A stretch of 60,835 nt of DNA, from assembly GCF_000485595.1 (NCBI RefSeq), contig NW_014577109.1, positions 549,380-610,214 of the forward strand, written 5' to 3'. Below, in pieces: positions 18,718 through 52,300 of this stretch. The notes beneath the pieces are model-generated. The model was not told the DNA's origin and did no database searches. It saw only the letters and a program-made list of their open reading frames with translations. Origin of the DNA: Priapulus caudatus. Its lineage: Eukaryota; Priapulida; Priapulimorpha; Priapulimorphida; Priapulidae. Position 1 is the stretch's first letter. Every line of letters begins with the position of its first letter. Made by a program: the position numbers and the translations under genes.

Positions 18718-18937
18718 GCTATACGGCGTGCTGCTCTAATTCATTCAGCAATCTGATAGATTTCTCTACGTGCGCGTGAAGACGTGAGCTGTGCGCATCT
18801 TATACGTTACAAAGAAGAACAGATATCCAAGGAAAATAACAAGCAGAAAAGAGCAAGACGGCGAACACGCTCCTAGGCGATTCAGCAACGAAAACAAGAC
18901 ACTATCGCACTTTTCCGTCGGAGAACTACAGGTAAGA

Positions 18938-19669
18938 ATGTTTGGCATGAACGTAGGGAGTGGCGAGGGCAGCTGCTGTGGCGCATGCACGACGCTACCG
19001 CCACCGCCACCACCACCCAAGCAGCGCTCCACATCCAGTGCCCGTGGTAAGCTCTGGGGACATCCACATCCTCCGCATCCTGGTCCATGGAATGCGATGC
19101 ATCTTTTCCCACCTGCCTCCGGCGAGCACTGGGGACACCCGCACGCCGGTGAATGGAACGCCATGCCTCCTTTCCCACCTGCCTTCGGCGAACACTGGAG
19201 ACATACGCACCCCGGTCAATCGGCGTACATGCAGGGAGGATATTCGGAAACAGACCACGGGAGAAGGAATGGACCGATGGCACCGCCGCCGTATGGCGCA
19301 TGTCCACGCGGCTCGAAACAACATGTGCGCCGCTATGTATTCGACGGTAGCCGTGGGACAATGAGCTGGGACTTCACCAAGGACGAGCCGCCGAACGAGA
19401 ATGACGAGGAAACAAAGTCATGCACGCGTCCGTTCTCCATTCAAGTCTTCACGTTCGGCATGCGGCCGGAGAACGTGACGGTAAAGGTAACCGCTGGAGG
19501 CATGCTGAAGATACACGGTATCCTGGACGAGGAGGGCCAACACGTGGAGCTGGAGCGTGAGTATCCCATCCCGGAGGGAGTGAAAGCTACGAGCCTGAGC
19601 ACGAGCATGGAGCATGGTGTGCTGGTGATCAGGGAAGAGCGTACCATTCCCGTGCAGATAGAGGATTGA
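18938..19669 (+). CDS. Small heat-shock protein (Hsp20) with His/Pro/Trp repeats
   Basis: This is an intronless 243-residue protein; the open frame extends upstream to 18791, but 18938 is the first in-frame ATG. The alpha-crystallin domain (about 165-240) is nearly identical to that of the divergent neighbour: FTFGMRPENVTVKVT, MLKIHGILDEEG, EREYPIPEGV, HGVLVIREE. The N-terminal part differs: a CC-x-x-C cluster (13-17), a run of seven Pro, and three repeats of about 25 residues built on HWGHPHxGxWNAM...FPPAxGE (38-93). It shares only SRGTMSWDFTKDE (138-150) with the neighbour. The Pro/Gly/His/Trp repeats suggest a disordered oligomerisation arm, possibly metal-binding (inference). A CAGGTAAGA at 18930 looks like a splice donor just before the ATG, but no intron is needed. 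Heat induction is likely from context. Confidence 0.9.
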   Translation: MFGMNVGSGEGSCCGACTTLPPPPPPPKQRSTSSARGKLWGHPHPPHPGPWNAMHLFPPASGEHWGHPHAGEWNAMPPFPPAFGEHWRHTHPGQSAYMQGGYSETDHGRRNGPMAPPPYGACPRGSKQHVRRYVFDGSRGTMSWDFTKDEPPNENDEETKSCTRPFSIQVFTFGMRPENVTVKVTAGGMLKIHGILDEEGQHVELEREYPIPEGVKATSLSTSMEHGVLVIREERTIPVQIED

Positions 19670-22257: not shown

Positions 22258-22386
22258 TCAGCCTTTGTGTTTTGCCTCGTGATTGTTAAACTTTTTCGCC
22301 GTAAGCTTTGCGGTGGCCTCTTGTTCCCCTGAGCTGTCGTGAACATCACCATCCGACTCCGAATCACTCCTTCCATCCTTCTGAAC
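22258..22386 (-). CDS. Ceramide synthase exon 9 (acidic C-terminus, stop)
   Basis: Codes VQKDGRSDSESDGDVHDSSG then EQEATAKLTAKKFNN and HEAKHKG, then TGA at 22258. The cytosolic tail carries Ser in acidic context, the sites phosphorylated by casein kinase 2 in mammalian ceramide synthases. The acceptor is GGACGCACAG. Confidence 0.92.
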   Translation of the reverse strand, partial: VQKDGRSDSESDGDVHDSSGEQEATAKLTAKKFNNHEAKHKG

Positions 22387-25300
22387 CTGTGCGTCCGCAA
22401 GAACAGTGCGAAAACACATTCATTAGATTAGAATTATTGTGTAAAACACACACAGGCATGATCACAGTGTGCAAGAAATAACAGAGTATAATAACTGCAA
22501 TTTCCTCACAAGTTCTTTTTTGTTACACCCAGATAACAACAAATGAGATAGTGAAATGGAGTGTCAAGCACCACGATTAATGAATACTATATTGTTCACA
22601 ACATATCATGCAATTTTGATCAATCGCCTCGAACCTAAAATACGGCATGATTAGTTTTCATTTCAATAATGAAAATGCAGGCTAAATGATTACACACCTA
22701 CTTAATTAGATATTTAGCAATGACGTTCTTATTTTAACAGTATGTGAACTGTTATTGTATATATTAAACTAGTTTATTAATTATGTTCATAACACTAATA
22801 ACATATTAAAAGAAAAATGTATAAATTTTAAAACGAAATCCGAAACACCGAAAGGTTTAGTCAAACGCGTTTCACTTTCTCCGAAAACAGGCTACAAATC
22901 ATGCATTGTGCTGCTACGACCGTGTTGCTACCGGAACATAACTTAAGGCTGCTGGAAAACGCTGACCAGGCATAATAGACACAGTCAAAATTAGGAAAGC
23001 AAACTGACCGCAGACGCCTCAGCAAGTACATTTCTAGGGCAGTCGATCGCGAGTACCACGACGAGGAGTGGACGGAGAGGGACGTAACCGATTTCTGGTC
23101 ACCACTCGCTGCAACCGTCCAGCCACGGTTAGAAACCGGTAACAAACTTGGGTGGCCAGCCAATACCCGGGCACCCGACGTGCACGCCAGAACACGACGG
23201 CCCCCACATCCACAGGCGCCCTCTTTATGCCTGCTGGCACAACAGGCACACAGGGCGAGTGCGCACGCCATCGCGGCGACGACAGGGCAGAAAAACGCAA
23301 CATGTGAGCGAGAGGTGGAAGGGTGTTGTAGCACAGGGCAGAAGAATGCCACGTGTGAGAAATAAGGATGTGGTAGAACAGGACAGAACGGCAGCACATG
23401 CAAGTAGGAGGCAGAAAGGTGTGGCACAGAGTGAAGACGAATGAGAACGGAAAGTAGATTAATATGGTACACAGGGTAGAATAACCTCACAGTGCAAGTA
23501 AGTGTCAAGAATAGGTTGGCAGTGCAGATTATAAGAATACTACACTGGTTAAACAGGTTACCAGGAGTTAGAAGGGTATGATAACACGGAGTAGGAGAAC
23601 ATCATGTGTGTGAGCGAGAGTACAAAAGGGTGTGGTAGCACAGGGTAGCAGCACAACACATGCACGAAGCTCACTGGCCCACCAGCCACTCATGAATTTG
23701 CCTGCCTGATAAAATTACACGGCACGGCCAACGTTGCGACAGTTGGTCCTGAGTATGTCACTGGGAAGACTACGTCAGAGGTAGAGTTCCGAAATTCGTT
23801 CGCTCTATACTAAATTTCAAGGGCAAATCAGTCACATAAATAGCCAATCACCAGGCAAAAAGATACTACTTCAAACGCGGCCTAGACGTGGACGAAGCAG
23901 CAGGTTGCTACACTATGCACCAATAGCAAGTGTTCAATGCAGGTAGGGTTAGTACGGCATCGTTAGAGGGCATTTTGCAGACGCATAATGAAGGATGGAG
24001 GTGGGGCTATTACAGCACCACTAAAGGGCAGCACGGCACAAGAGAAGCAGCTGCAGTGACACGAACACTGGCTTGCCCACTCTGCCTTTACCCACAACTG
24101 GCATTAGTTTTAGTTTGGCTGAAATGAAGCCAAAGGGCTGCCGCACGCAAGGTGCCAATAAAGATTTTGGATCGTGTCTGCTTCCTACTTTCTTTCCCTT
24201 TCTTTCCTTCCCATGCTCCATAGCTATACATATCTCTCTCCCTCCTGCTCCACACTTGCTCTTGTTTCTGCATCTCCCCGCTTTTTCTTTCATCTGCATC
24301 ATCGTATTCACTTACATCTCTATTTACTTTTCACTATCTCTGTCTCTCTATATATAACATGCCCTATCCTTCCCTCTTTGCACATCTCTCGTTCCAATTT
24401 CTCGCTTCTCTATTGCCCTGTATCCTACGACTTTCAAACGGGATTGCCTAACAGTTGTTTGAGTAAGGACAGACTGTGCCGACCCAGTGTGCAGCTAGCT
24501 CATCGTTTACATACCTGGCCTTCCTGTATGGCTTTACAAGCAACTTGGCATAGCATATAGAACCAGATTAAGTGAAGAATTTGCAGGAGATACAGGAGAG
24601 CGAGGAATAGCATTCTTGATTTGAATTCTCCAATGATGACGTGAGCATCATACATGACTGTGCGTAAAACCCTGTGGGGAAAAGGAGGCATCGGTTATTC
24701 GGACTTTGCCGGTGGTGCCAGCAGTCGGCTGCAAAACAAAACTGTTAACGATCGATGCGATCACAACAAAACGAAACGGGCAGAGGGAGATGCGCAGGGT
24801 AGGGCCGGCAGGGCAGCGTCTCATCCCCGCGACTACTTACCCACCACCACCCACGCGCACGCGCACTCGGCGTACGTACGGCGCGGTGCCGCAGGAAAGC
24901 AGCTAGACAGCAAACCGCGCCATAGCAGTGGCAACGCGCCCTTGGCTGCAGGACTGGTAAGGACGAGGCGCGGGCACTCACTGCATGCACTGGCATGTAG
25001 ACTGGTCATGCACAGGCAAGTAGGGCACACCTCTGCTGGTGCCAATGCGTCAGCCACATCATATGAGAAGGACAGATGTTATCCACACGGTGGAACGCAC
25101 ACTTAACTATTGTAATCAGTTACCGTCCTAGGGGCACCCTAAAACTAATGTTCAAAATGTATGTAACCCAGCTATAATTGCTCCTGGTGGATCTACTAAA
25201 TACCGGACAGTTGAACATTGCCAACTATGTAAAGGCATCATCCGTCTCCAGACAACTCGTTACGATATACACCTTGGACTCTTGGTCACAATCTTGGGAG

Positions 25301-28300
25301 CTGGCAGACACCGCCACTTTACACACTACTTGGGAGCGGGACGAATGAACGTGAACGAATGACAGAGATAGAGATAGAGGGAGAGAGAGAGAGATGACAG
25401 ATAAAGTAAGAGTGCACAACTCGAAAACGACAAACTCAAAAACGGTGAAAATTAAAAAGCAGACGCCGAGCCAGCTGTCATGTCTTACCGGGACGGGCAC
25501 ATCAAGTTGTCTACAAAAGGTTCAGAAATCCCAAAGACTTTTGCTCTGACGAAGTTCTTTCCGACTGCACATAGTTCGCCGAAGCGATCACCATGAGTAA
25601 CAATGACATCTAAGAAACACACGCCAATGCTTGCATCTCCAACAGCGGGCCAAAGCATGCCATAAGCTGTCAAACAGCGTCCACACCTGTGCTAAGAGCA
25701 TGCAACTGCTGCCTACTGAGCATTTCAAGCCAGGATTCATTCGTCGCGTGCACCATTGTGAAACCAACATCAATCACGAGTCACGCCTGTTCGACGTAAC
25801 ATCGAGACCATGCGGTCATACACCTGCAGATTTCTCCTTTTGACCTTCTTGCTAGCACGCCTGCACAATCTGATGTGGACATGAATACGGGATATCAAAC
25901 CAATAACACGTTTTATCCCCAACAAGTACGTCATCCACACTATCCACTTGTGTCAAACAGACATCACCATGGATCTTCTAAAAACACCCTCATACGAGGG
26001 TACACCATTACCAATAACTAGATAAATAACTGGTTCCATTTGTTGCGATCAGTCTCGCAGGATGCAGTTTGGAGTTGAATACTACGAGGTAAGGTATCAG
26101 ACTTCAAGCAGCATTCGCAAAGCAACATAAGCGAGAACCATAGCGATGAGATAAGCCACCAGCAACGAAGTTAAACAACTCGTAATAGACAACTGTACTA
26201 TAGTCGCGTAGCGCTACGTAATAACTGCATGAATTTGTTAATTCACACGCGGATTAGAACAGAGATCGGTTACGGAAAAGTGCAAAGGAGTGGGTGAGTT
26301 ATGTCTGGTAACACTTTGGGAAACCAGACTGTTTGTTACACATGCAGGAAAGCAGACTTCGCATCACAAGAAGCAACGTGTCAATCTGGTCAAAGAGCGT
26401 TGTACTGCACAGTCCAGTACACGTTAAATTTGGTCAAAATTTGATGCAAGTACACTGCCTCTTTAGCTTTAGAGCTTATACCAATGTTATGCCTGATACG
26501 CAGATGGCATTCAGGGATATACAAGGTGGGTATCCTGGAAGAAAAACGTGACCGTCTGTCTTCTGGAGGGACAGAGGAAGATGTTTCTGGTAGCAGCATG
26601 GTCGTATGCAGCGTTTCAATCATGTCAAAGCAGGTGCTCCTACCTGTCCAGTCACCACGGCATAATACGCAATGCGTAATATCATGTAGAACCATATGAC
26701 ATGCAAGATTTGCAGTATAACCAGTAAGCCATTGTAGATGATATATGCAGACATAACACTCATATTGAGCATGACATGGCCGACAGTCAGGCCAAAGTAC
26801 AATATCCTGCGAAAGAAATAACGGAATGAATAAAAACATTGGATACAATTTGGCAAAGTCTCTGAATTATTAGTAATAGGTTTAGTTCCCCCACCTACAG
26901 ATATATAGCACAACACCGCCCACTTCCACTGTAAGAGGGTGGCATTGCGTAGTGCAAAAAGATAAAGGAAAACATTATAAATTGAAAAATTAACCCAACA
27001 CACGCAAAATCTGAGGGACAGAAATTTGGAACACCAAGGATGTCATCACACTTCTGCAAAGGCTATGTGTGCAGTAGGAGGCATAGGCAAATGAACATAA
27101 TTTACACAACAAGAAATAAGAGGAATGGATAGTTCACATTGGGAGGCAGTATGGCTAGTGCGGCCTAAACTTAACTCCCGATGCTGTGCATGAGTGGCTT
27201 TTTGAAAATTATAACCAAGTGCAGCTCTTGGAAAGGAAAGGGGCATTGAATAACACCTTACAACGCGAAACAACATTCACATATCCATCACCAAAACGAA
27301 ACCGTTCTTATTACGTACACTTACTTACTATGAAAGCAGTTTATGACTTTAACACATAAGCATAGGGTGGCTAGCATTCTACTTACTGATAATTCGTATA
27401 CTGAGGGGGGGGGGGTCGAAATAACGTTTTGCTACTGACCCGTATGGAGTAATAACCTCTGAATAGCAACTGACCCATACGATTTTCAGCAAAGTTCTGA
27501 TGGCATGGCATGTCGAGTGTGTGAATATTTTGCTACGGAAGGCCTTGCGACATGATGAGGCACAAGTACTGTATACGCCATATTTTTCGCGTACAGATAT
27601 TTTCGCGAATTCAGACTTGAAGGACAATTGCGCAAGCGGTTAATTTCGCAGTCGGTGGATTAGGAATTATTCAGTATGAATTGTTCGCGTGTTGTTATTT
27701 TCGCGGTCGGGAACGCAGTCGCGAAATTTGCGAAAATTAAACCACCGCGAAATATACAGCGTATACAGTAGATAAAACATGGCAGCACCCACTGCTCCGC
27801 ATGTGACTCGCTGTGCTTGCTGTGATGCGGTTTTGCGATTTCACGTATGTTTTACACTAATCCAGGTTGAATCAGTTACTAAACAGATAGTCAGATCCGT
27901 AGTACCGTGATAGATACTGTGAGTAGTGGGCAAGCATTGGCAGATTGATGCTTTATGTGATACCTGCTCTACGTATAGTACAAATGCTATATTAGACTTG
28001 GCGTTTTGGCCAAATTTGAATTATGTTAATGACATTTGTTAGCACTCCTGGAAACGTGGTCCATTAAACTTATTTCAAATTGAAATAAATAGTTGATAGA
28101 AAAAAATGTTGCATAGTTCATATCAAACTGAAAACAATAAAAAGCCCACTTTCCCAGCTCGGCTTTCCCATTTCGTGCTGTAGCATTATACATGAATATA
28201 CATCCAAAATTACACTTTAAAAAATTAACCCTGGGAAACGTTGCATGGCAGTTTCCTTCTTACATCATAACACACCTATCACATCTGATCTATAGTTATC

Positions 28301-31300: not shown

Positions 31301-34300
31301 AGTTTTATAAGTGGCATAATCGGACAAAGACTTTATTGTCCTCCAAATTTTTCCCGCTTTCCGTTTTTGTCTCTTTGACATTCTAATGTTGTCGTCAAAC
31401 CAGGGCACACATGGTCTTACAGTGATAGATTTGGTATTGAGAGGATCATGCTGGTCTAGCAAGTTTGAAAGAGTTGTAGGATTTCACTAGTGAATTTAGA
31501 TCATCGGGAGAGTTACGACATAGGTCTGAAGCAGAGATATCCGCCTTTAGTGACAGTAGATCAATAGATTTTAGCTTCCGGTATTTTAGTTCCTTTACAG
31601 TAAATGTAGGTTTTGGGGCCTTAAGCTCACACGTAACTGCAGCATGATCAGAGAGAAGGCAACCAACGCGTGGTGAACCACAGATAATGTTGTCAGCTTG
31701 GCGATTAATCATTAAGTCCAGTGTGTGACCTTGTACATGGGTTGGTTGTTTTACGTGCTGTTCCAGCCCCATTGATTCCAACAAGTTCAAAAGTCTATTT
31801 GTGTCAGGGCTATCAGCATCAACATGAATGTTAAAGTCTCCTGTTATGAAAAGAGTATCAGCAGTGGAGACTGGGTGCTCAGAAGAGTATGGCGGTCTAT
31901 AGATAATGGCAAGTCGTAGTCGAAAAGGTCCAGATTGAATTTTCCATTCTGAATATTCAAATGAAGCTGTCTCGGCAGCTGCAATGTTATTGACAATCAG
32001 ACTGTCTCTAAATACAAGTGGTGTGCCGCCTCCTTTGCGGGTCCTGCGTGGCTGATCCAGAAGAATATCCGAGAGGAGTGGCTAGGGCTCTAGCAGCAAC
32101 ATCATTGTCGGTAAGCCATGTTTCAGTTATGGCAATCAAATCAGCTTTACTCTCGCAAACAAAATCAACAAACTCTGCCGACTTGTTCTTTAAGGAACGA
32201 GCGTTTAGAGTACATAGCTGCATGAACGGCTTCTCAGTGACAGGCATCGCGTCGACAGTCGGCACGTTAGCAATGAATTTGATACATGAAATAGGCTTTG
32301 AGCTACGTGTACTCTTGCAGTAATAACTGGTGAAATAAACTCATACGGATGAATACCGTTCAAGTTCGAATAATTGTTATCCGGCTGACGTCCGACTGGC
32401 CGTCGTGTAGCATTGATGAGGGGTTTAATTGGCCGACGGTAATTTCTGCCCGCCCTTGTTCCTCGCTGTCTCATCTTTGATTTCTTGCACAGCTGTAGTG
32501 ACTTTATTCTCGTCCATACAGCACTGTTTAGACTTGATTTGTCGATGGCAGAAACTTCACGGTCGATTGAGCGTAGCATTGCACTTGTGTACCGGGCAGC
32601 CATATTGTGACGCTGAAGAACTGTAGCAGATTTGCTAAGAAATCCCAATTTTGCAGGCCAAAATGTTCACAAACTATCGCTTGTAATTCACTTACAATGT
32701 TTTTTGCCTGTACCTTGGGTGTTCATAAAAGTACTTGTTTATAACAAACACAAATAAAACACTTAATAATCGCGTAAAATTACACAAATGGGTGCAGCTA
32801 TGCAGCGCAACCCTTCAGCATAGTCACGCACGTGTATTACTATCGTATCGTATTTCTACTATAGTATGAACTAACACAACAATAGCCGCGTTCACACTTC
32901 ACACGTAGCAAGAAATTCGGTATTTAGCGTTCACACGAGGCAAAATGCGCGGTCCAAGAAATACGGTATCTAAACAGATCCGGTATTTCATGTAAATACG
33001 AGGCTTCCCAGACCCCAAATATTTTGCCGTGCTTGAGAAATACCGGATCACTTGCACCGCGCATTTCCTCGTGTGAACGCTAAATACCGTATTTCTGAAG
33101 CCGCGTATTTTATAGACTGCTCCGCGCTCGACAGTTCCAGTGTAACGCAAGTGGAACTGTCGAGCGCGGACCAGTCTACGTATTTTATCGGCAGTTGGTG
33201 CGCATTGAATTGTTTATTTCGCATTGTTCGCTTGATTGTTACTAAAGCAGCTCGTAGCTCGCAAATACGGCATTTCTGGAGCCGCGAATCAGCGTGTGAA
33301 CGCTCGGCCGCGTATTTGTCTCAGATTCGGTATTTCGCAAATACCGTATTTCTGGAGCCGCGAATCAGCGTGTGAACGCTCGGCCGCGTATTTGTCTCAG
33401 ATTCGGTATTTAATAAATACAAGGTCTCGTCTGAACGAGCCTAATGTCTATTTTGAGGCATAAAACCAGAGACTGCCACACCTGCAAAGGACCAACATTT
33501 ATAGCATAATCTGATGATTAACCATTTTAAAATACAATCAATAGGCTTTCTACATATTCCCATCTTTCAAATAAATATTAAATAAATAATTATTGTCAAC
33601 AATGTGCTGGAGTATCGTTTATTCATGAGAGCCTGCACAAAATTAACTTTTCAATAATCTCTTCTAACATACGGATTATACTTGTTGTACATAAAATCAC
33701 GAATTGGTTAGTCATTAGCAATGTAATTTAAAGTGGGTCAAGTCTGTTGTAAATACATCCTAATGTTTAGCCATGGGCACTGCATTTAATAGACCTTTAC
33801 ATTAAATTTAACCGTGTATTATTGTTTCCCTAGATCTGCATTTTTGTTTCAGTTATAACTAGATACTCACCTGTAGGGAAAGATGACTAACCGTGTCAAG
33901 AACCACATCACCGTAAATATGATGAACAAGAGATCGCACAGCCGATGCAGGCGGCAGTACTTCGCCATCTTTGCTGCCTAAAACACGACAAGGTACACGC
34001 ATGCAACTCGCTGCCACTAACTGTTGTCATCAATTCTCTAACTAACCGAAAGCACGCGTAAATTACTGTGATATTAAAATTTCTAGACCTGGTCAGCTAT
34101 GATGGATGTCCAGCTGCCTAATACTAGTGAAACCCAAAACAGCCATATAGCACTAAAGCATGCGCTATGCTTCTGCCAAGGTCTGTACATATCACACAGG
34201 ATAAGGCTACAATTAAAATTTTTTTGTTTGCCCTCACCCGACCAAGGCTGAAAAGTTTGGGTAGGTAGGGAGGGTTTTTTCTTTTTTTTGAGAAGGGTCT

Positions 34301-37300
34301 TTTTACAAATTCAGCATGGTGTCTACATGCGCGGGTGTGCTTGTGTGGAGATACCTTTTATGTTGAATGTTTGTTTTGCTTAGTACATATAATGTATTGC
34401 TTACAGATTTATATAATGTAGTGATACAATTTGTAAAAAAAAAAGAATGGGAAAGATCAATAATTTTTTTTGCGTCAGTCCCTTTTTGGCGGGTCGGTCG
34501 GGTGAGAGCAAACAAACAATATTTTTATTATTTATATGGCCTAAGCCTCACTAGCTCAGAAAGGCAGCTATCTATTTAAATGCTTGACCGTACAGATGCA
34601 CAAATGCAGTACTATTACGTATCACTGCTGCATTACCAATAAGCAGAATTTAGAGATACAACTATAAAGCCTAGCGCAGACTAGAATCGCAGCCGAGTTG
34701 CATGAAAAAGTCGCAAGTCTGTGGGAACGTGCAACTGCAACTCGTAGTGATTTTGGTCGCTTGCAACGAGTTCCAAGAAATCAAACGGGTTTGATTTTCA
34801 GCAACTCGTCGCTCACAATCGCTTCGAAATCGCATGTGTGCGGGTAATCTAAGTAATGGAAAGACAATGGAAAGAGAATGGAAAGAACAGCAGTCGCTAG
34901 CATGCGCACACACAATGAAGCGTGCGACCGATCGCATGCGGTTGCAGGTTGCAGCAAGAGCAACCAAAAGTCGCAAGTCTGCGCTAGACTAAAGTAATGA
35001 CTCGTGACAGACAATGCATTATAACAACTGAACACTACAGGTAACTACCTCCATCCAGAAATCTACTGCGTCATGTATGACCAAGACAAGTGTGCCAACA
35101 CGAATCATGTTTCCGCCCCAGGAGAATGTCAACAGCATCAGTGTACACATGTGATGTACAAACATTTGCCAGAAATCCTGAAAGAAAGCAGGTATCGTAT
35201 CATTATGTATATGTGTAGTTTGCATACGTACATGTAGACGTGCATAGATTCACTCCGCAAAACATCCATAACATAACATTACAATTTAGACTTATGACAG
35301 TCATAATTACCGATGATCTTTCTAAAAATGCCCTCCCCCAGGCACCCAATTTACTGAACCTGAATATAAAATGCTACTTCTACTGAATTATTTTATTACC
35401 TAGATATAATACATTTAATTATTATGTGCAATATAATGATAAAATACCACACGTGTGCTCTCACCAAGTGAATACAACATAGTAGCAGTTCAAAACATTT
35501 ACACACTCCTAGCCTGGCAACAACCATTACCTATGGAAGTTACTTCCTATACAGCACAGCATGCACAAGAGATTAAAGCACTGGAAGCACCATTTGCTTT
35601 TTTATATTGGGGCAAATGTAATTATAATGCAATTTCAGTAGTAGTACGAATATTTGGCAGACGGATGATAATCAAATCACAATCTCACAACATAGTGCCA
35701 GAAAACCTCCCATGTAAGTAAAATTATCCCGTATTCTCCAAAACACTGGCTACTCCACATACAAAAACCTTAGCACTAACCTATTCTGTAGTTTGCAATC
35801 AAATTGGACGAAATACATTTTCTCGTGATAGAGAGCTCAAATATAATTTATGATTGCTATAAAGGGATAATATCACCAATAAACCTTATAATGCTTACTC
35901 AGCATATTTCCTCAAACATAATGCGAAACTAACCTCATTTTTCATTTTTGAAAGCTACCATGACATTATCAAACACAACAATCGCTGTACACTTCCATAG
36001 AAACTACACGTCTCAGTGATTCACCCTGAAGAATGTCCAAATTACACCATGAATAATTTGAATGTCCAAATTACACCTTGTCAGCAATATCCAAAGCGTA
36101 GTGAAATAAATTTTAATTATTTATAATATGTGGGAACTACTCAACACACCAACACACTCACACCTGTCATGTATTAACACATACAGCACTGCGCACATGG
36201 AACAAATTCACAGCACTGTTGTATTGTGTGCAATAAAAGCCCTGGCAGGGCAGCTATGAGCGACCAGCTACACGAAAGCCGTGAGTACACCTATACACAC
36301 TCACGCTCACACCTACATGGATAAAACATATGCCTAGCAACCTACAATCAGTAAACGCATGAAAATAAAAGTGTCAAAATTGGACTGCCAACAACTAAAA
36401 AAAAAACAGTAACTATTTCTGTCATTGCTATACTGGCTGCAAGACCAGAGCAATGTAACTCATAACATTAAGTCGGTCATACCTTCCGTTTAACATCCAG
36501 AAACTGGGAGAATGTGAGTGATAAGTAGAATGACATCTCTATCATGTAGAACCAGTAAACTTCTGGAAGAAGAGGCTGCAAAAATAGGGACTTGATTACA
36601 AACGTTGACTCGTGAGTTTAATATTATCTGTAATCTATCAAGCATAGTTATTCTTATTTTCTCAAATAAGATATTTCAGATAATAAAATGCACAATGAAT
36701 GATATAGGCACCACCACCAGTTCTACTTAGTTAGATGTGTCTGCTGCACAACATCTCTCACTAAACAATTAAAAAGCTTGTATTTTGTTTTGAACGTCGC
36801 AGACATCCTAAAAGTTGTTATTATTTCCATATATAATTATAACATCAACCACAAATTTCACACAAGAGATAGTGATTCGAGTTAACGTTGTGATTTCTCA
36901 ATGTGTAAATACATTCAACTTGAATTAAACCAGTATTCATCAATCCTAAAGCCACTGAACGGTTTAGGCAAATTAAACGATGTACATTCCTACAACTTTT
37001 GCCACAGCAGCCACTGTTGGATTTTGTGTGTATATTATTTATATTATCAGCTTTCAAACATTCCAACTATCCTTATTGACATCGTGTGTTTTTCTCCAAA
37101 TATGGCATAGATTATAGTCTCAAAGGTTTCTGATATAAGTTAGGAAATTACAATGTGCAGGTAAGAAAGTTAATATTGTTATGTGGACGTGGATGAATAG
37201 CAGTTTTAATAACAGTAAAATGAAAAAAACCGGTTGCTAAACGAAATAATAATAATAATAATAGAAGGGATGTTTATGACAGCCACTAACCTTATTATAA

Positions 37301-40300
37301 TCTAATGCACCATATTATAGTATACAGCTAATTAAAGAGTACAAGCTCCTTACCCATAAAATGAACTAGACATCTTTTAGTACACTGGCTAGCAACGTTA
37401 TCAGTATCCTATCAGTTCCACAAACAAGTGCCGCGGAGCGACAGCGTTCTTAAGTTACTGCGGTGACTCTGTGGTGGAGTGTGGGATTTCTAGTACACCT
37501 GTTCAGTCCCCAAAATGTGTTCACATACACGCCGAAAAGTGGAATGCACAGGATCGGTATCAGGAACCTTCTCAAAATGTCGTTGGGATCGTTATGTAAG
37601 GTGCCACGAGATGGGCGTACGTTTAAGTTCTTCAGATTAAACGAGATGGAAGCTCTCATAGCGTAATAGTAGGCAAAACTATTTGCAAGACAGAATAAGG
37701 TAGCACTCATCCATTTAACCTAAGCAAGCCTACAGGCTGCAATGGCATAGAGAGCTGCCACCTGTAACCAATTAACGCCAGGCAAAACTGCACCAACACG
37801 ATGCACTGGGAGGCCACTGGGCATGGACACGTTACATGTAACATACTGACAGTCACAGAATTCTATGAAATTACGGATTTATAGGACATTAACTTTTTTA
37901 ACCAATTTAGCGTTTTTGGAATTTCACTGTGACTCTGGTAGCTCATATCAGGCATTTGTATAGATTTTAGAACCGGGCAGTCAAATTTCTTTCTAACAGC
38001 AGTCACCAATCCAGTTTTACCTCCTTTGGAGGGTCAAGGTTATTGAATTACCTCTTCGCATGTCGCGGGCAGAGTAGATTTATGGTCCTTTTGCATATGC
38101 CATACAAAATTGCTAGGTCACCGGCTTGAAAAAAAGTTTTTCTATGCCTGCGTCGAGCCATGGGGCCTCCGAAAATGTCTCTAAAATTGCCTCGTGCCAG
38201 ATTTTGACCTTTGACTGTTGACTCCAATTGCGGCCAGTGATGGCTTTTCGCTACCATTGATGCTATCACACTATCCGGCCTAGTCGAGCCGTTTGGATTT
38301 GTGCCGCATTTGCTTGTCTCATACCTTATGGTTAGGAGTGATGTGCGCCTACTTTTTGACACCTCTTGACTTTGACTTTGCCCTTTAGCTTCGAATCCCA
38401 AAAAGAAAATAAAAAAAAAAAAAATTCTCGGTTTTGCGATCCCCCCCCAATGTGCGATTATCCGTGCCGTATTAGTCGGAGGCGGTTAAGATTTGTGCCC
38501 AACTTTGACAGGCCGCAGGGACGCACACGGACGGTCACGGACAAGCGATTCTACAAGCTGGCATCTGACTATGTCAGATGAGCTAAAAACAAGGTCATAT
38601 AAGGGTAAATAGGACTAGTCCTTGCAGCTAATCAGCTGGGATAACATATGATAACAATCTGCGGCAGGTAACAGAGACCAATGTTATTTTCTTAAAATTC
38701 TTTCATGCTATGACCTTGCCCAATGCACTTTAGTGTGTGAATGTATTTGATAAACTTCTTGTGCAGCTTTTTTCGCATAACTGACTGTGACACTAACACT
38801 ATACAAGGTGCGCAGCAGCGACAGGCTCATCTAACGTCTACTGCGGTGACTCTGTGGTGGAGTGGTGGGTTTCTAGTAAACCCTGTTAGTCCCAAATGTG
38901 TTCATTATGCCGAAACAGTGGAATGCACAGGGATGTATCAGGAACCTTCTCAAAAGAATGTTCGTTGGGTACATTATGAGTTGCACGAGAGTGGGCGGTA
39001 CGTTTAAGTGTCTTTCAGATTAAAGATGGAAGCTCCATCATACTTAGTAGCAACAATATCTGCAAGACAGAATAGGTAAGCACTAATCTGTTTACCTACA
39101 CAAGCCTACAGGCTGCGCAATAGAGATCTGCCACCTGTAACCAATTAAGGCAAAAACTCTACAGTAGCAACAACATGCACTGGCAGTAGCCACTGGCAGT
39201 GGCATCGTTACATGTAACATACTGACAGTACAGATGCCATATAAATTATACGATTTAAGGAGATAACTTATGTCAACAAATTTGCTTTTGAAATTTCACT
39301 GTGACATTGTAGCCTATGTCATCCAGGCATGTTATTAGATTCTACTAGCAAACCGGCAGTCAAATTCTTTCTAACAGGCAGTAAAAAATCCATGTTTAAC
39401 CTCCTTTGAGCGGTCAAAAGGTTATCCGACACTTACTCTTCGCATGTCAGCAGAACGGGACTTTCATGGTCCTTTCAATAAAGCCACTAAAATGCCTAGG
39501 TCACGCTGAGAACAAAAAAGTTTTCCATCGCTCCGTCAGCAATGTCCTCAGAAAATGTCTATCTGCCCTGTGCATTGACCTTTGCCTGTGACCTCCATTT
39601 CGGCACAGTGATGGTTTACTACCATGCATGCTATACAACCGACTATCACGAGCCTAGGTCGAGCCGTTTAGATTTGTGCCGCAATTCTGCATTTCCTCCT
39701 ATACCTTAGTTAAGGAGTGAATGTTCCCTTCTTTTACACCTCTTGACCTTTGACTTGTTGCCCCAGCTTCGACATCCAACTCGTTTTCTGATTACCCCAC
39801 GTCCCGAATATCGTGACCGTACGTCGAGCGGTTAAGATTTGTGGCCCAACTGTTGAAGCGACGCGGGTCAACGGACGGACGGAGGACCGCACGGCACGAT
39901 CAAGCGATTCTACAAGCTGCATCTGACTATGTCAGATGTCAGATGAGCTAAAAATACAGCAACAATAATCACCTGGAATGGAAAGTTGATCCAACAATGT
40001 GTTGTGTCCCAAAACCATGGTTTCTGGAATTAAATAGCACACAATTAGTAATAGCTACAGAAATAATTATGTAGTTATCTAACCTTATATAAGATGAGAT
40101 TAATATTATGTATAAAGCACAGATCACAAACCTGAACCGTGATATGCCAACAGTACGTGTTTAACATGTGCCCCAACTGTAGGGCTGCAACGATGCGCCA
40201 AGGTTTCGATTCGATTCGATTTACGATTCAAAGTCTGCGATTCGATTAATTTCGATTCGATTCATGAAAGCAAGGCAAGACTGTTTGATATGTATATTAT

Positions 40301-43300
40301 TTTAATCACAATGAGAATTTCAGGTAACAAGTAATCCCTGACTTTCAGTGTCTATCACAGAAACAAAAAAAACGTAAAAGTATTGTCGCTTCTTGACTAG
40401 AACTTGAAATATAAGTTAGAAAAAAGTGTTTTTCAATTTAGTACAAATTTTTTAAAACTTTCACAGTCACGACTCACTACATGTGAACTACCACATCATC
40501 AGGAATGATCATGTTTTTTGACAAGCACACAAGCATGTCCACATTTTCACTGGACAGGCATGCTCGGTGTGCTGTCTCCAGCCGTGGAGAACACTCTCTC
40601 GCTTGCCACACTTGTAGCTGGTACTCCAAGGCACTGCCTCGCAGACTTAGACAAAATGGGGTAGAACAAATTAGTATCCAAATTGCCTACTCAAATCGAA
40701 TCGAATAGAAAATGAGAGATTTTGAATCGTGAATCGAATCGGCCGCTTGAATCGTGATTCACGATGCACCACGATGAATCGTTGCAGCCCTAGCCAACTG
40801 TAGTTTAAAAGATAACAGAACTGCTTTATCAGATCTATCAATATAGGTATACGCAGTGCACAAAATCAGCAGCATCGCATTGCACAATGCAATGTAGAGT
40901 TCAGGTAATGCTATCCAACTTAAGATTGCATCACAGACGCAACTATACGAACACCAATATGGATGAATAATGTCCTAGGCCTATCATAAATTTCATCTAT
41001 AACTAGTGTTGTCAATCGGTTGTAATTTCGTAATCGATCATCGGTTGGACCCCAGTAACCGATGATCGGTTACAATTGGTTACTCGGGTTGTTGAATGCC
41101 TGCGTGTGCATGTACGTGTGTGCATGTATGTGCTTGTTTATAATTATAAAATCCCTAGTGTGTCCTAGACTTTAGCTCCTCAACAGGAAGGAACTCCGGC
41201 GAATCTCGGGTGATTCCCGAACTAAAATAGCGATGATATCTCTGATTCTCATCAGTTTTCCAAGTTTTCTTGTTCAAGTTTTACATTTATTTTCGATTTT
41301 TCTCTTCTTTTTTTTCCCGATGAAATCGATTATTGATTTTGATAACCAAGCGCTTGGTTCGAGCCACTGTTCAACCGATGATCGAGTATAATCAATGATC
41401 GTGACTTCACTATCTATAACGCATATCGATAAAGCACTGCTAAAGTTCATTGCTGCTCATTTGCTATATCAATGTTGACAAGTAAAACTTAAGATAACAT
41501 ATATATATAATTATTGTGATAAAATACTCCAAATTTGCAATAATCTTTGGTGAAGATTTTGTTGTTGCATGAGTGCATCTGTGATGCTTATCATAATCGT
41601 AAATGAACGTTTTTTCAAACTCAATTAAATTAAACACTGTTCAAAATGTTTCTGAATCGGTGATATTTTACTTCTCACACAAAAAAAACAATTAAATAGC
41701 GAGCTGAACTTTTGTTATATACTATCCGTTACATAGCTAGTATATAGCCATGGCATCATTTTAAAGTGCATGGGATACACTGATAAACGAGATGCTTATC
41801 ACTTGTATAAACGCTTTCAATCACTTTATCACTTGTATCTGTGGGAGACATCCAATGGAGACTTCTCTACCATCTACTTCAGTCGAAAGCAACCAACTGT
41901 GAAGTGGCTTGTAGAACAATGCCTCTTTCCTACTTTGCACACTTACACTGTACTTATCGATTGCAACTTCTTTCCTATCATAGCTGTACATACTTACATT
42001 CCAGAGAATGCATACTCCATATACAAAGGCACTCAAATAGTAAAGAAACCTCCAACTGCAAAAATCACAAATATTCCGTAAGTATTGTACAGTGTAACAG
42101 TTGTACTTTGTAAATGTGAAACAAAGAATATTCAATCTATGTAGTTTTGACATAACCACAACTGTGCTCTCTGGTAGAAGCAAAATCAGAATTTGCAGCT
42201 AGTCAAGTCACTTTCAATTATAAGCCTTACATTATGAGCAAGACTAAATTACATTATTTTAGTTTTACTTGACTACTTTATTAAAAATGCCTTCGTACAC
42301 CTCTTTTCCCATACCCATGGCATCACTGGGTTACGCCTTGCTTAGAACATATGATAAAGTGAACAGTGGCCATAGTTTTTCATTGGTGGCTAAAAAATAA
42401 CTTTGGTGGATTAAGTCTTGGCTCAAACTTTAAAACATCCAGAGCCCTGATTATGGATTGACAGAAACACCTTTGAGCAACTGAAAATCTACATTTCCCC
42501 TTCTACTACTCAACAACTGTGTAACACTAACAGTTCACTGTTAATGGTGGCTACAGATTATGTGTAGGATCGACTACAAGATATAGATAATACAGTGAGA
42601 GACACTGAACAAATTTCACGAACCGGTCCGGGACAGGCTTCAACTAGGATGCTCACATTTGATCACACGACATAACGGGCGAGTCAACCGTAAGCTAGAC
42701 GAGCGCATGCAGCGCGCACGTACCAGCTCTCTGTGAACTTGCGCAGTACGCTCGGCCTGTCCTGGTTCCGTCGCTGTCGGAACCACCGCTCGATGTGTCG
42801 CTCCGTCACGTCCAGCTGCTTGGCCAGGCCGGTCACCACTCGGTGGCTGGGCTTGCATGCGTGTCGGTATGCCTCCTCCAGGACAGGGTTAGGTGCGGCC
42901 GGCCGAGGTCTCGTGTCCTTAAGATTGAAATATTGACCGATGGGTGCAGCAACAATTCTGAAAGAGAACCCATGGCAAGACTGAAATACGTAGTGACTGG
43001 TGTCGCCCCTGTGAAAGCATGAAAAGACATTTTACTAAACCTATTAGTATAATACACTTTAACAGGGTTTCTTCTGAGGGAAAATTAGACAACAGCAGTA
43101 ATGGCCAGTTTGGGGGAAAAACGCGCATGATGGATTCAAAGGCGCGCAGTAGGCACGAATGTGGATTCTGCAGGCAGACGTGGGGGGAGAGAGTTAGATG
43201 GGGGTTCTGGGGGTCTCCCCCAGCAAAATTTTAAAAATTTGAATGTCTTAGACTGCATTTGAGGTACCCTGAAAATAAAAGTTCACCTTTTAGTTTAAAT

Positions 43301-49300: not shown

Positions 49301-52300
49301 AACCAGCACCAGTTTCACCAGTTCAGAGGTACTACTCACTCAGCTCAGAGGTTCAGTTCAGATGCTACGATCTCACAATGCATTGTACCATTTGAACGCT
49401 ATGCAGTTTCCGATTCAGTATGAAAATTTCTTCATTTCAATGTGCATGGCTGCGTGTCTCTATCTATACTATGAGCAGCTAATAGCTCCTGATATTATAT
49501 TCCTTTTATTCATGCTACGATCTCACAATGGATAGCTGTACGTGGGGAGCTCAAGAGTTGGAGACGCCAGGAATCTCTACATATTTGCACGAGAGAATAA
49601 GACGAAAAACATTCTTTATCAAGAGGCTTTCAAATGAAAAGTCCAACCCATTCCCAGGGCTCGAATTTCCCCAGTTTGAGGACTAATCCGTACGGATTTG
49701 TTCCTTCACAAATGAGCAAATCCGCTCAAAATCTAAGTAATCCGTACAGAGTAGGCTAAATTTTACTATGAAAGAAAAAATTGCATGCAGGACAAATCGT
49801 CCTGAATAAAATACCTTAAAGTTAAACATTGCTATTTTAGCGTTGGGAGCTCAGCATTTTATTGTACAGATTTGTCAGATAGTTGATTGAAATGCTGTAT
49901 AATGGCTCTGCCACCACAGACTATTTGTCTCCTCTGTGTACATTTAATGATTTTAAGACAAAATTGACTAAGAAGTTGCTGAGGTGGAAGGAGCACTGTA
50001 CCGGCAAGTTATTTTTAAGTAATCCGTACGGATTTCCTTCAGGTTTCCTCATGAAATCCATAACAAATCCGTACGGTAATTTACTCTACGGATTACCGGA
50101 TTACCTCTGAATTTCGAGCCCTGCATTCCTACATGCTCTTATAATAACTTTTTGTCATTTACACCGTAATACTATTATGTCCCAGGGGTTCTAAGTTCGG
50201 TTGTGCTGTCATATAAATGTCATACGTAACAGTTTTTTCGTTTTCCCCATGCTTATTATCTTATTACACTCATTTCTTAATATTAATATTGTCTGCAAGG
50301 TTATTGTCGATTTTTACCCAATGTTCTTATTCTGTCCCATTATTAGTACTATGAATTAGTAGCACGATTTTACCCAGCGCAGCGGGTACCCGCAGCTAGT
50401 TATTTATAAATTGATAAGATAAAACTAAAAAAAACGCCGCCATTTTCCCATAGATTTCCCATCATACGTAGCGAAAAATACAAGTACAAACCGGTACAAA
50501 CAGTACAAAAAGAGACATAAGAACATCCAGTATGGCGTTTTACAACGTTCAAATAGTATAGCTGTTCGACATTCTCTTATTTTAACGTGTATTTCGAGGT
50601 AAATAGTAATTAAGAAGTGATGCGATAGTTGCAAACATGTGACAGGTGAGGTCAAATGTGGTAATACATTGTGTTATTTACGAAATTTTACGTATGGAAG
50701 GGTGTCAGGCTCCTACGACGTGTAACAGTCGGAGAGCCTGGTCGGTTTAATGATATAGTACTAGTAGCTACTGAGGGTGCAAATCCACTTTAGGCACCTT
50801 AGGTATACGAGTGATGGCCAGTTCGTGTGTTCATCAACTGTGTGGACTTTCCGTATATCAAGGTATGAAACCGCTACCTACACATTAGTGTACTAAGCTA
50901 GGCAGTGATACTTTACGAATAAGTGTGCTATAAAATGCCCGGCGAGGGCCACCGCGATATTCGTTTTTAATGCCGGCGTTTTACTACCTCTACGCTCCCT
51001 TAACTAAGCAAACGCCTACTTGAGCCCTAAACCTAACCCTACTTCCTACCCTAACCTTGTTGTACTTGAGTAACCGATAAAATTAAACTCGAAAAGGACC
51101 GCGATTTAGAACATCGTACGCGTGACCGGCAGCCGTCGCATCTGTATAATGTAGACCCACCAGAGGTGGGTACCGGAGCCTTTTACCTTTTTTCGGGATG
51201 GCCGATGATCCACTCGTGCAGGTTTGCGGTGTATTTTCAGAACTTTAGAATTCCATGGGGTTTATTCTCAACCAACTTTCTCCGCGATTTGGGAATTTTT
51301 GGTATGCATATACGTCTGGTATTAACTAGATCTGTTATAAAAATTCGAAGTGAGGCGTCGCGATTTCTGAGCGCATTTCTGTGAGCCTGTGCGTACGCAT
51401 TTCCCATGCGCATAGCGTCGGCAAACGGCGTCTGCCGCTCGATTGCCGTCGTGGTCGCTCTTACACCGAGTACGTCAAGCAGTCCTAAAGAATGGCGTCA
51501 GATTATTCGCCGCTCGTCTTGCTTTTATCAGGTTATTCGTTTCTACAAGAGTATTGCCCGATACATAGGAGTTCCAGATAGGCGGGGGTTGTAGTGAAAT
51601 AAACCCAGTTTGGAAGTTCTAGTCTCTGAAAATACACCAGCAAACCTGCCCGAGTGATTCACTCGGGCATTCCTCCGCAAAAAAGTATAGGCTCGCGTTG
51701 TAACCCTATCCTCTTGGGTTTGGGTTACATTATTGTATCTACCGTCAGATATACGCCGGCTGCCGGGCATATAGCCACTGTGTATACTTTATGACTTAGG
51801 GTTAGGGTTTTTGAATCATTCTTTGATATATGGAAAGTCTGTGCATCAGTTGATGATACACATAACTCTGTGCATCACTTCGTGATACCTAAGGTGCCTA
51901 AAGTGGATTTGCGCCGCTACTGAGTACTGGCTGTATCTTAATCAATGCAACCCGCCGGTGTTATCAATTCATGGTTGATGAATTTGCAATTTTTACGTGA
52001 ATAAGTCACCAAGTAATAAAATGTTAATTCGATTTCCTAACAACTCAAAATACCACAGTCATAAATTAAAAATAGATAATATACGAATACCAAATAACGG
52101 ACATCGCTTTTATCATTAGTATTGCCATTGGCATTCTAAGCCACTGTGTACAAAGCGAGGGAAAGCGAACTATGGCCGCCACCAGTACCAACCTTTCAAA
52201 AAGATAGCGAAACATCAATACTCCCACTGCTAGTGGAACAGAAGCTAACAGATCACTGAATTCTACATAACGGACTTCGTCTGTGCTGCGTATATCCTCC

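What the first reader, a model, noticed from the sequence alone, without database searches (positions are those of the whole stretch)
24515..26806. Duplicated, phase-locked penultimate exon in a ceramide synthase gene
The exons at 26644-26806 and 24515-24671 both have good splice sites, both complete the same Arg codon and both end on Gln before exon 9. Both lengths (163, 157) leave remainder 1 mod 3, so using both or neither destroys the frame: joining 8a to 8b gives an early stop. The shared block LQILHxIWFYM shows descent from one exon. The variable part is the loop before the last helix, which published mutagenesis of mammalian ceramide synthases links to acyl-CoA chain-length choice. One gene could thus make two enzymes of different chain-length specificity by alternative splicing. 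I know of no described case, but cannot search.
Basis: partly seen in the sequence, partly recalled or inferred. Interest (0 to 1): 0.92.

Follow-up and report, generated by a model that had tools for sequence, protein, structure and literature searches.

The report
Swappable exon in ceramide synthase gene
A marine worm's ceramide synthase gene carries two alternative versions of the exon that caps the enzyme's fatty-chain tunnel, and oysters and a ribbon worm have database isoforms that differ in just that piece, so one gene may be able to make two enzymes with different fatty-acid preferences.

Summary
The minus strand carries a complete nine-exon ceramide synthase gene (52383-22258) of Priapulus caudatus, identified by an exact protein match. 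Exon 8 exists in two versions, 8a (26806-26644) and 8b (24671-24515). Both have strong GT-AG sites and the same phase; they share 20 of 53 residues. Each alone gives a full-length enzyme (384 or 382 aa). Using both, or neither, breaks the frame. The 8b form equals NCBI's predicted "ceramide synthase 6-like isoform X2" letter for letter, so public annotation already implies alternative forms. New here: database isoforms of Lineus, Saccostrea and Magallana have 0-2 differences outside this exon and diverge inside it; Lingula and scallops fit less cleanly. The exon encodes the TM6-TM7 loop and TM7; in human CerS6 that loop caps the acyl tunnel and sets chain length. Most likely this is a mutually exclusive exon pair that switches acyl-chain preference. 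The pair is well supported; the chain-length switch is inference. A single ancient origin is possible but unresolved (53 columns). Eight literature searches aimed at it, in one open-access library, showed no paper describing it. Closest precedent: the acyl-gate exon switch of ACSL1/ACSL6.

The parts
52193..52383 (-). CerS exon 1 (start ATG, first TM region)
   Evidence: phmmer to human CerS6 E 5e-14 for the open stretch; splice junctions
42724..42957 (-). CerS exon 2 (Hox-like domain)
   Evidence: Pfam Homeodomain E 6e-7 in spliced protein
41998..42055 (-). CerS exon 3
39973..40023 (-). CerS exon 4
36483..36575 (-). CerS exon 5
35049..35177 (-). CerS exon 6 (Lag1p motif: HH and two D, invariant in the 37-row alignment)
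33871..33977 (-). CerS exon 7 (most of TM6; ends in split Arg codon AG|G)
26644..26806 (-). exon 8a, alternative penultimate exon: end of TM6, TM6-TM7 loop (13-residue equivalent of the specificity loop), TM7
24515..24671 (-). exon 8b, alternative penultimate exon (11-residue loop DAHVIIGEFKS); present in NCBI isoform X2
22258..22386 (-). CerS exon 9: C-terminal DxRSDxE-type motif (DGRSDSE) and stop
   Evidence: motif described in PMC8789539 (start of abstract, passages)

Best explanation
This is a tandem-duplicated exon pair, used one at a time, in the only CerS2-6-type ceramide synthase gene that I found in this genome (Priapulus caudatus). Each choice supplies a different TM6-TM7 loop plus TM7, that is, the cap and one wall of the acyl-CoA tunnel, onto an otherwise identical enzyme. 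SHOWN from sequence: gene structure, homology of the two exons, phase lock, full-length frames, and database isoforms split at the same exon in other protostomes. INFERRED: splicing picks exactly one exon; transcripts with both carry an early stop that should trigger nonsense-mediated decay, and transcripts with neither lose TM7. INFERRED from CerS5/CerS6 work: the two forms accept acyl-CoAs of different length (or saturation), so splicing could set ceramide chain length where vertebrates use separate CERS genes.
For: P0001 (Priapulus 'isoform X2') equals the spliced 8b form in all 382 residues. Isoform pairs: Lineus X4/X2, 323/323 identical outside and 13/53 inside (16/48 in the alignment); Saccostrea X1/X2 320/320 and 15/52; Magallana gigas X1 and Crassostrea gigas X3 (the same species under two names, recalled) 324/326 and 18/53. 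In the oyster alignments the swap begins and ends within about two residues of the Priapulus exon borders. Both exon types keep near the pace of the rest of the protein between oyster and scallop: A 29/52, B 31/53, upstream 176/282 and 177/282. The 8b model has block pLDDT of 94-97 over residues 291-330 and matches human CerS6 8qz6 (TM-score 0.89 by target length). The CerS6 paper states that the TM6-TM7 loop seals the tunnel and limits chain length and that TM7 carries the conserved Trp318, kept in both 8a and 8b.
Against: No RNA reads were seen; the isoforms are predicted or X-numbered models. I saw no database record of the 8a form. Chain-length specificity was not measured, and TM7 changes could instead alter activity, stability or lipid contacts. 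The selection test between 8a and 8b is weak: NG86 dN 0.67/dS 1.74, YN00 0.80/0.92, near saturation. 8b is on a long branch.
Confidence: 0.7

Rival explanations
1. The exons are a real mutually exclusive pair, but the switch alters something other than chain length: catalytic rate, dimer or regulator contacts, product exit between TM4 and TM7, or membrane location.
For: TM7, not only the loop, differs between 8a and 8b; PMC11919693 suggests product exit between TM4 and TM7 (passages). 8a and 8b are equally good TLC domains (158.2 and 159.1 bits).
Against: The specificity loop is the part for which an effect on chain length is reported (Tidhar 2018, seen only as cited), and 8a differs there by two residues in length.
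Confidence: 0.25
2. One exon is a decaying or rarely used duplicate (8b, the faster-changing one, or 8a), kept open by chance.
For: Priapulus 8b has a long branch (1.23 against median 0.28); the dN/dS test does not exclude relaxed constraint.
Against: 8b is the form NCBI holds as isoform X2; both exons have splice scores near the top of 780 and 597 decoys; the same arrangement is seen in oysters and a ribbon worm, with both exon types evolving at about the rate of the rest of the protein between oyster and scallop.
Confidence: 0.05
3. Independent exon duplications at the same place in several phyla, rather than one ancient pair.
For: Holding Priapulus 8a and 8b together as sisters is not rejected (AU p 0.24 in 52 rows, 0.123 in 35 rows); Lingula p 0.33, Lineus p 0.23. 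Holding all 18 bivalve-like rows of the 52-row set together is not rejected either (p 0.183).
Against: 8a is 30/53 identical to another animal's exon (P0121) but 20/53 to its own 8b. In the 35-row tree 8a sits in a 22-row group (support 91/80, not starred) that excludes 8b, and the 16 rows I had labelled A by eye are one side of a branch (58/70, unstarred). Oyster A and B rows held together are rejected (p 0.00017), and the 11 bivalve-like rows of the 35-row set held together p 0.032, so the bivalve duplication at least predates the oyster lineage.
Confidence: 0.5
4. Assembly artefact: a second allele or a neighbouring paralogue placed in the intron.
For: Draft assembly of 2952 contigs.
Against: 8a and 8b are 38% identical, far below alleles; the CerS profile finds no second copy of exon 7 or 9 in the window; whole-genome searches with 8a and 8b find only these two exons, both on this contig; an NCBI protein joins 8b to exons 1-7 and 9.
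Confidence: 0.02

Closest known systems
ACSL1 and ACSL6 fatty-acid Gate-domain exon pair (PMC1543647; passages read)
   Same: A mutually exclusive exon pair in an acyl-lipid enzyme; the swapped piece lies at the acyl pocket; the paper reports both gate versions in vertebrates, fly and plant, as alternative exons or separate genes.
   Different: Different enzyme family; a short motif in which the paper stresses a Phe/Tyr change, against a whole loop plus transmembrane helix here (20/53 identical); variants lacking both gate exons are reported there, whereas skipping both would break the frame here.
Vertebrate CERS2-CERS6 paralogues
   Same: Same Hox-TLC enzyme type, with chain-length choice attributed to the same loop.
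   Different: Variety there comes from separate genes; here from alternative exons in one gene.
Human CERS2 exon skipping in breast cancer (PMC7876150; passages)
   Same: Alternative splicing of a ceramide synthase that changes ceramide levels.
   Different: A cassette skip of the Lag1p exon with loss of activity; not a swap, and not this exon.
NCBI model 'ceramide synthase 6-like isoform X2 [Priapulus caudatus]'
   Same: Identical to the 8b form of this gene.
   Different: A predicted gene model; I saw no record of the 8a form and no description of the exon pair.

Membership tests
Ceramide synthase, CerS2-6 (Hox-containing) type | TLC (TRAM-LAG1-CLN8) domain | tested here: met
   PF03798 158-159 bits in both isoforms, cut-off 24.6
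Ceramide synthase, CerS2-6 (Hox-containing) type | Hox-like domain after TM1 | tested here: met
   PF00046 E 6e-7; aligned with the human CerS6 structure sequence
Ceramide synthase, CerS2-6 (Hox-containing) type | Lag1p residues HH...D..D and TM7 Trp | tested here: met
   H217, H218, D245, D248, W324 invariant in 37 proteins; named as critical in PMC10122649 (CerS5 numbering); Trp also in 8a
Ceramide synthase, CerS2-6 (Hox-containing) type | C-terminal DxRSDxE motif | tested here: met
   DGRSDSE encoded by exon 9; motif from PMC8789539
Ceramide synthase, CerS2-6 (Hox-containing) type | N-acylation of sphingoid base | not testable with these tools
   needs enzyme assay
Mutually exclusive exon pair | tandem homologous exons between the same constitutive exons, same phase | tested here: met
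Mutually exclusive exon pair | joint inclusion or joint skipping breaks the product | tested here: met
Mutually exclusive exon pair | transcripts hold exactly one of the two | tested here: inconclusive
   annotated protein with 8b alone; isoform pairs in 3 other species; no reads, no 8a record seen
Mutually exclusive exon pair | mechanism of exclusion (steric, splice-site class, competing RNA structures, decay) | tested here: inconclusive
   spacing of 1972 nt between the exons and GT-AG ends at every intron speak against steric or mixed-class exclusion; frame lock and early stop fit decay; RNA structures not tested
Acyl-specificity exon switch (as in ACSL1/6) | swapped segment at the acyl pocket | tested here: met
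   by alignment only: loop E299-S309 of CerS5 maps to residues 296-306, inside exon 8
Acyl-specificity exon switch (as in ACSL1/6) | the two forms differ in substrate use | not testable with these tools
   needs expression and lipidomics

The most novel reading that the evidence does not exclude
The exon pair dates from the common ancestor of protostomes, or even of bilaterians. Since then one ceramide synthase gene has produced two chain-length forms by splicing. Arthropods kept only the A version, and deuterostomes only a B-like version, which vertebrates later multiplied as CERS2-6 genes. Priapulids, molluscs, nemerteans and perhaps brachiopods still run the splicing switch.
Probability: 0.3. 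Interest if true: 0.85.

Novelty: new member of a known kind. Interest (0 to 1): 0.66.

Why it matters
Ceramide chain length affects membranes, growth and cell death, and in vertebrates is set by which of several CERS genes is expressed. If splicing of one exon sets it in other animals, chain-length choice becomes a regulated, tissue-switchable step within a single gene. Nature would also have supplied matched enzyme pairs, identical except for the tunnel cap and TM7, in several phyla. These allow a clean test of how the TM6-TM7 cassette sets acyl specificity, which has been studied by changing mammalian enzymes in the laboratory. The finding also puts exon duplication beside gene duplication as a route to lipid diversity.

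Tried and rejected
Chance reading frame for 8b: rejected (splice scores, whole-genome searches, NCBI identity). A third exon-8 copy in the window: none found. A nearby paralogue as source: the genome search with P0001 gives 11 matches, 10 in this gene and 1 on C3; it is not exhaustive, since a TLC-domain search also gave C378 and others. C3 and C378 read by eye as CerS1-like, a label recalled from memory; C3 shows one clear exon-8-like stretch. Tree of exon-8 pieces: only 53 columns; the first tree of 52 rows was mostly unresolved. I then dropped 17 rows (the long rows Lineus_B, Lingula_B and Solemya, the tardigrade and millipede rows, and 12 others) and rebuilt with 35; that choice was made after seeing the first tree. 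My first bivalve test (17 rows, p 0.032) wrongly left out Solemya, which lies inside the B group; with it included the p is 0.183 (18 rows), and in the 35-row set without Solemya 0.032 (11 rows). Upstream intron similarity of 8a and 8b: score 16, reached by 7 of 200 shuffles; downstream 11, reached by 179 of 200; not taken as evidence. Protein search restricted to the 8a region: 2 hits of 11 candidates. Lingula X1/X3 is not a clean pair: the C-terminus after exon 8 differs too. Pecten X1/Argopecten X2 is a cross-species comparison (305/336 outside, 19/53 inside). dN/dS between 8a and 8b is uninformative. Rfam at gathering score: no match.

Literature: ten searches of an open-access library; eight aimed at this case and two at background. 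I saw listings only (2 of 4 papers, 8 of 443), except the papers read in passages or one section. Tidhar 2018 was not held and is known only as cited.
Full report
WHAT IS THERE. The minus strand of the window holds a complete ceramide synthase gene of nine coding exons, 52383 to 22258. All introns are GT-AG. Exons: 1 52383-52193, 2 42957-42724, 3 42055-41998, 4 40023-39973, 5 36575-36483, 6 35177-35049, 7 33977-33871, 8a 26806-26644, 8b 24671-24515, 9 22386-22258. The spliced protein has a TLC domain (159.1 bits with 8b, 158.2 with 8a) and a Hox-like domain, the HH/D/D residues and the TM7 tryptophan, and DGRSDSE in exon 9. It aligns with human CerS6 (residues 12-343, E 7e-109 with 8b; 12-345, E 1e-101 with 8a).

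WHOSE GENE. The best of 998 database hits (120 listed) is 'PREDICTED: ceramide synthase 6-like isoform X2 [Priapulus caudatus]', 100% identical over 382 residues; a script confirmed identity to the spliced 8b form. The cluster holds two member sequences. The 8a form is 349/382 identical to it, above the 90% clustering limit, so it could be the hidden member; I could not see it.

THE PAIR. 8a (163 nt) and 8b (157 nt) share 20 of 53 aligned residues, complete the same Arg codon and end on Gln. Each alone keeps the frame. Both together stop after 7 codons of 8b, 133 nt before the last junction, a typical target for nonsense-mediated decay (inference). Neither gives a frame-shifted 368-residue protein without TM7. 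Their splice sites score at or near the top of 780 GT and 597 AG decoys in the 11 kb around them (matrix recalled). Whole-genome searches with 8a and with 8b each find only these two exons.

SAME EXON, OTHER ANIMALS. Among 182 database proteins (searches listed in each; one search added none) plus the spliced 8a form, I screened all pairs for over 70% identity outside exon 8 (more than 200 columns) and an identity more than 20 points lower inside (more than 30 columns). Thirteen pairs passed. Four are within species with 0-2 differences outside: Priapulus 329/329 outside, 20/53 inside (the 8a side being my own splice); Lineus longissimus X4/X2 323/323; Saccostrea cucullata X1/X2 320/320, 15/52; Magallana gigas X1 against Crassostrea gigas X3 (one species, two names; recalled) 324/326, 18/53. 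Two involve Lingula and seven are between species. In oysters the swap begins and ends within about two residues of the Priapulus exon borders. Lingula X1/X3 differs also after exon 8, so it is suggestive only; scallops give only a cross-species comparison (Pecten X1, Argopecten X2). I did not examine whether other same-species isoforms in the list lack such a difference. The 90% clustering of the database can hide isoforms, so absence in a species means little. These are protein records; I saw no exon maps of those species.

AGE. 8a resembles A-type exons of other animals (30/53 with P0121, 29/53 with P0007 and P0008; the organisms of these three are not given) more than its own partner 8b (20/53). 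Oyster A matches scallop A (29/52) and oyster B matches scallop B (31/53) far better than A matches B within an oyster (15/52, 18/53), and holding oyster A and B together as one clade is rejected (p 0.00017), so that duplication predates the oyster lineage. For bivalve-like rows as a whole the test depends on sampling: p 0.183 with all 18 rows of the 52-row set, 0.032 with the 11 rows of the 35-row set. For Priapulus the sister arrangement is not rejected (p 0.24 with 52 rows, 0.123 with 35), although the 35-row tree places 8a in a 22-row group with other A-type and arthropod exons and without 8b (91/80, not starred). A single protostome or bilaterian origin is therefore open. Both exon types keep near the pace of the rest of the protein between oyster and scallop (upstream 176/282 and 177/282), which argues that both are in use there.

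WHAT THE EXON ENCODES. In the AlphaFold2 model of the 8b form, TM6 spans 263-301, the loop 302-304 and TM7 305-338, with block pLDDT of 94-97 over residues 291-330. The best structural matches are human CerS6 8qz7 and 8qz6 (TM-score by target length 0.85 and 0.89). An oyster A-type form models similarly (TM6 259-292, TM7 301-333; mean pLDDT 84.6). I made no model of the Priapulus 8a form. In human CerS6 the TM6-TM7 loop closes the acyl tunnel at the lumenal end and thereby limits chain length; TM7 lines the tunnel and carries Trp318 (PMC11919693, passages and section 7). The CerS5 specificity stretch E299-S309 (PMC10122649, passages) corresponds to CerS6 290-300 and to DAHVIIGEFKS, residues 296-306, in the 8b form (the match of CerS5 to CerS6 letters is recalled). 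The 8a equivalent is 13 residues, two longer (alignment). The exon therefore swaps the tunnel cap and one tunnel wall.

HOW IT MOST LIKELY WORKS. One exon is chosen per transcript; double inclusion is removed by the frame lock and probably by decay. The two exons lie 1972 nt apart with ordinary GT-AG ends, so crowding or mixed spliceosome types are unlikely causes of exclusion; a regulator or competing RNA structures are possible and untested. The two enzymes probably differ in acyl-chain preference. This last step is inference from mammalian work. The genome search with P0001 finds one other locus (C3, a 37% identical piece), and TLC pieces on C3 and C378 look CerS1-like by eye. On that evidence Priapulus has a single CerS2-6-type gene, and splicing could do part of what five genes do in vertebrates.

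COMPARISON. The nearest precedent is the acyl-gate exon pair in ACSL1 and ACSL6 (PMC1543647, passages). Ceramide synthase splicing in the papers seen is exon skipping in CERS2 (PMC7876150, passages). 'Ceramide synthase' with 'mutually exclusive exons' gave 8 papers, none about this by their listings; other combinations gave no paper or, by their listings, unrelated ones. These searches cover open-access papers only.

VERDICT. A real, well-formed alternative exon pair at a functionally telling place, with matching isoform pairs in other phyla, apparently undescribed in the papers I could search though partly present in automatic annotation. The chain-length switch is a good hypothesis, not a result. 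The late check added a genome search with 8b and corrected the bivalve test; neither changed my odds.

Noticed in passing
window 18791-19666 (+) and 17530-16703 (-): An ORF with an HSP20 domain (E 2.5e-4) and, on the other strand, an ORF with a very similar C-terminus read by eye (Pfam gave no HSP20 hit there): an inverted pair of small-heat-shock-like ORFs downstream of the CerS gene.
   Followed up: partly
window 32340-29731 (-), intron 7: Remains of a non-LTR retroelement (endonuclease-like ORF PF14529 E 7e-6, below its cut-off; reverse-transcriptase-like stretches in several frames by eye), broken.
   Followed up: no
P0093 (Chamberlinius hualienensis, millipede): The protein carries an extra, partial exon-8-like stretch just before its exon-8 region, as if a gene model had joined parts of two alternative exons: a possible exon pair in a myriapod.
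   Followed up: no
G000:C378:8359-8511 (L006) and G000:C3:497212-501256 (L016, L017): Two loci with CerS1-like pieces in the same genome: paralogues or haplotypes.
   Followed up: partly
P0130, P0138, P0151 (Lingula anatina, all listed with contig length 566206): Three Lingula ceramide synthase proteins with A-type or B-type penultimate segments; P0138 also has a different C-terminus, so alternative terminal exons or tandem genes may be mixed there.
   Followed up: partly
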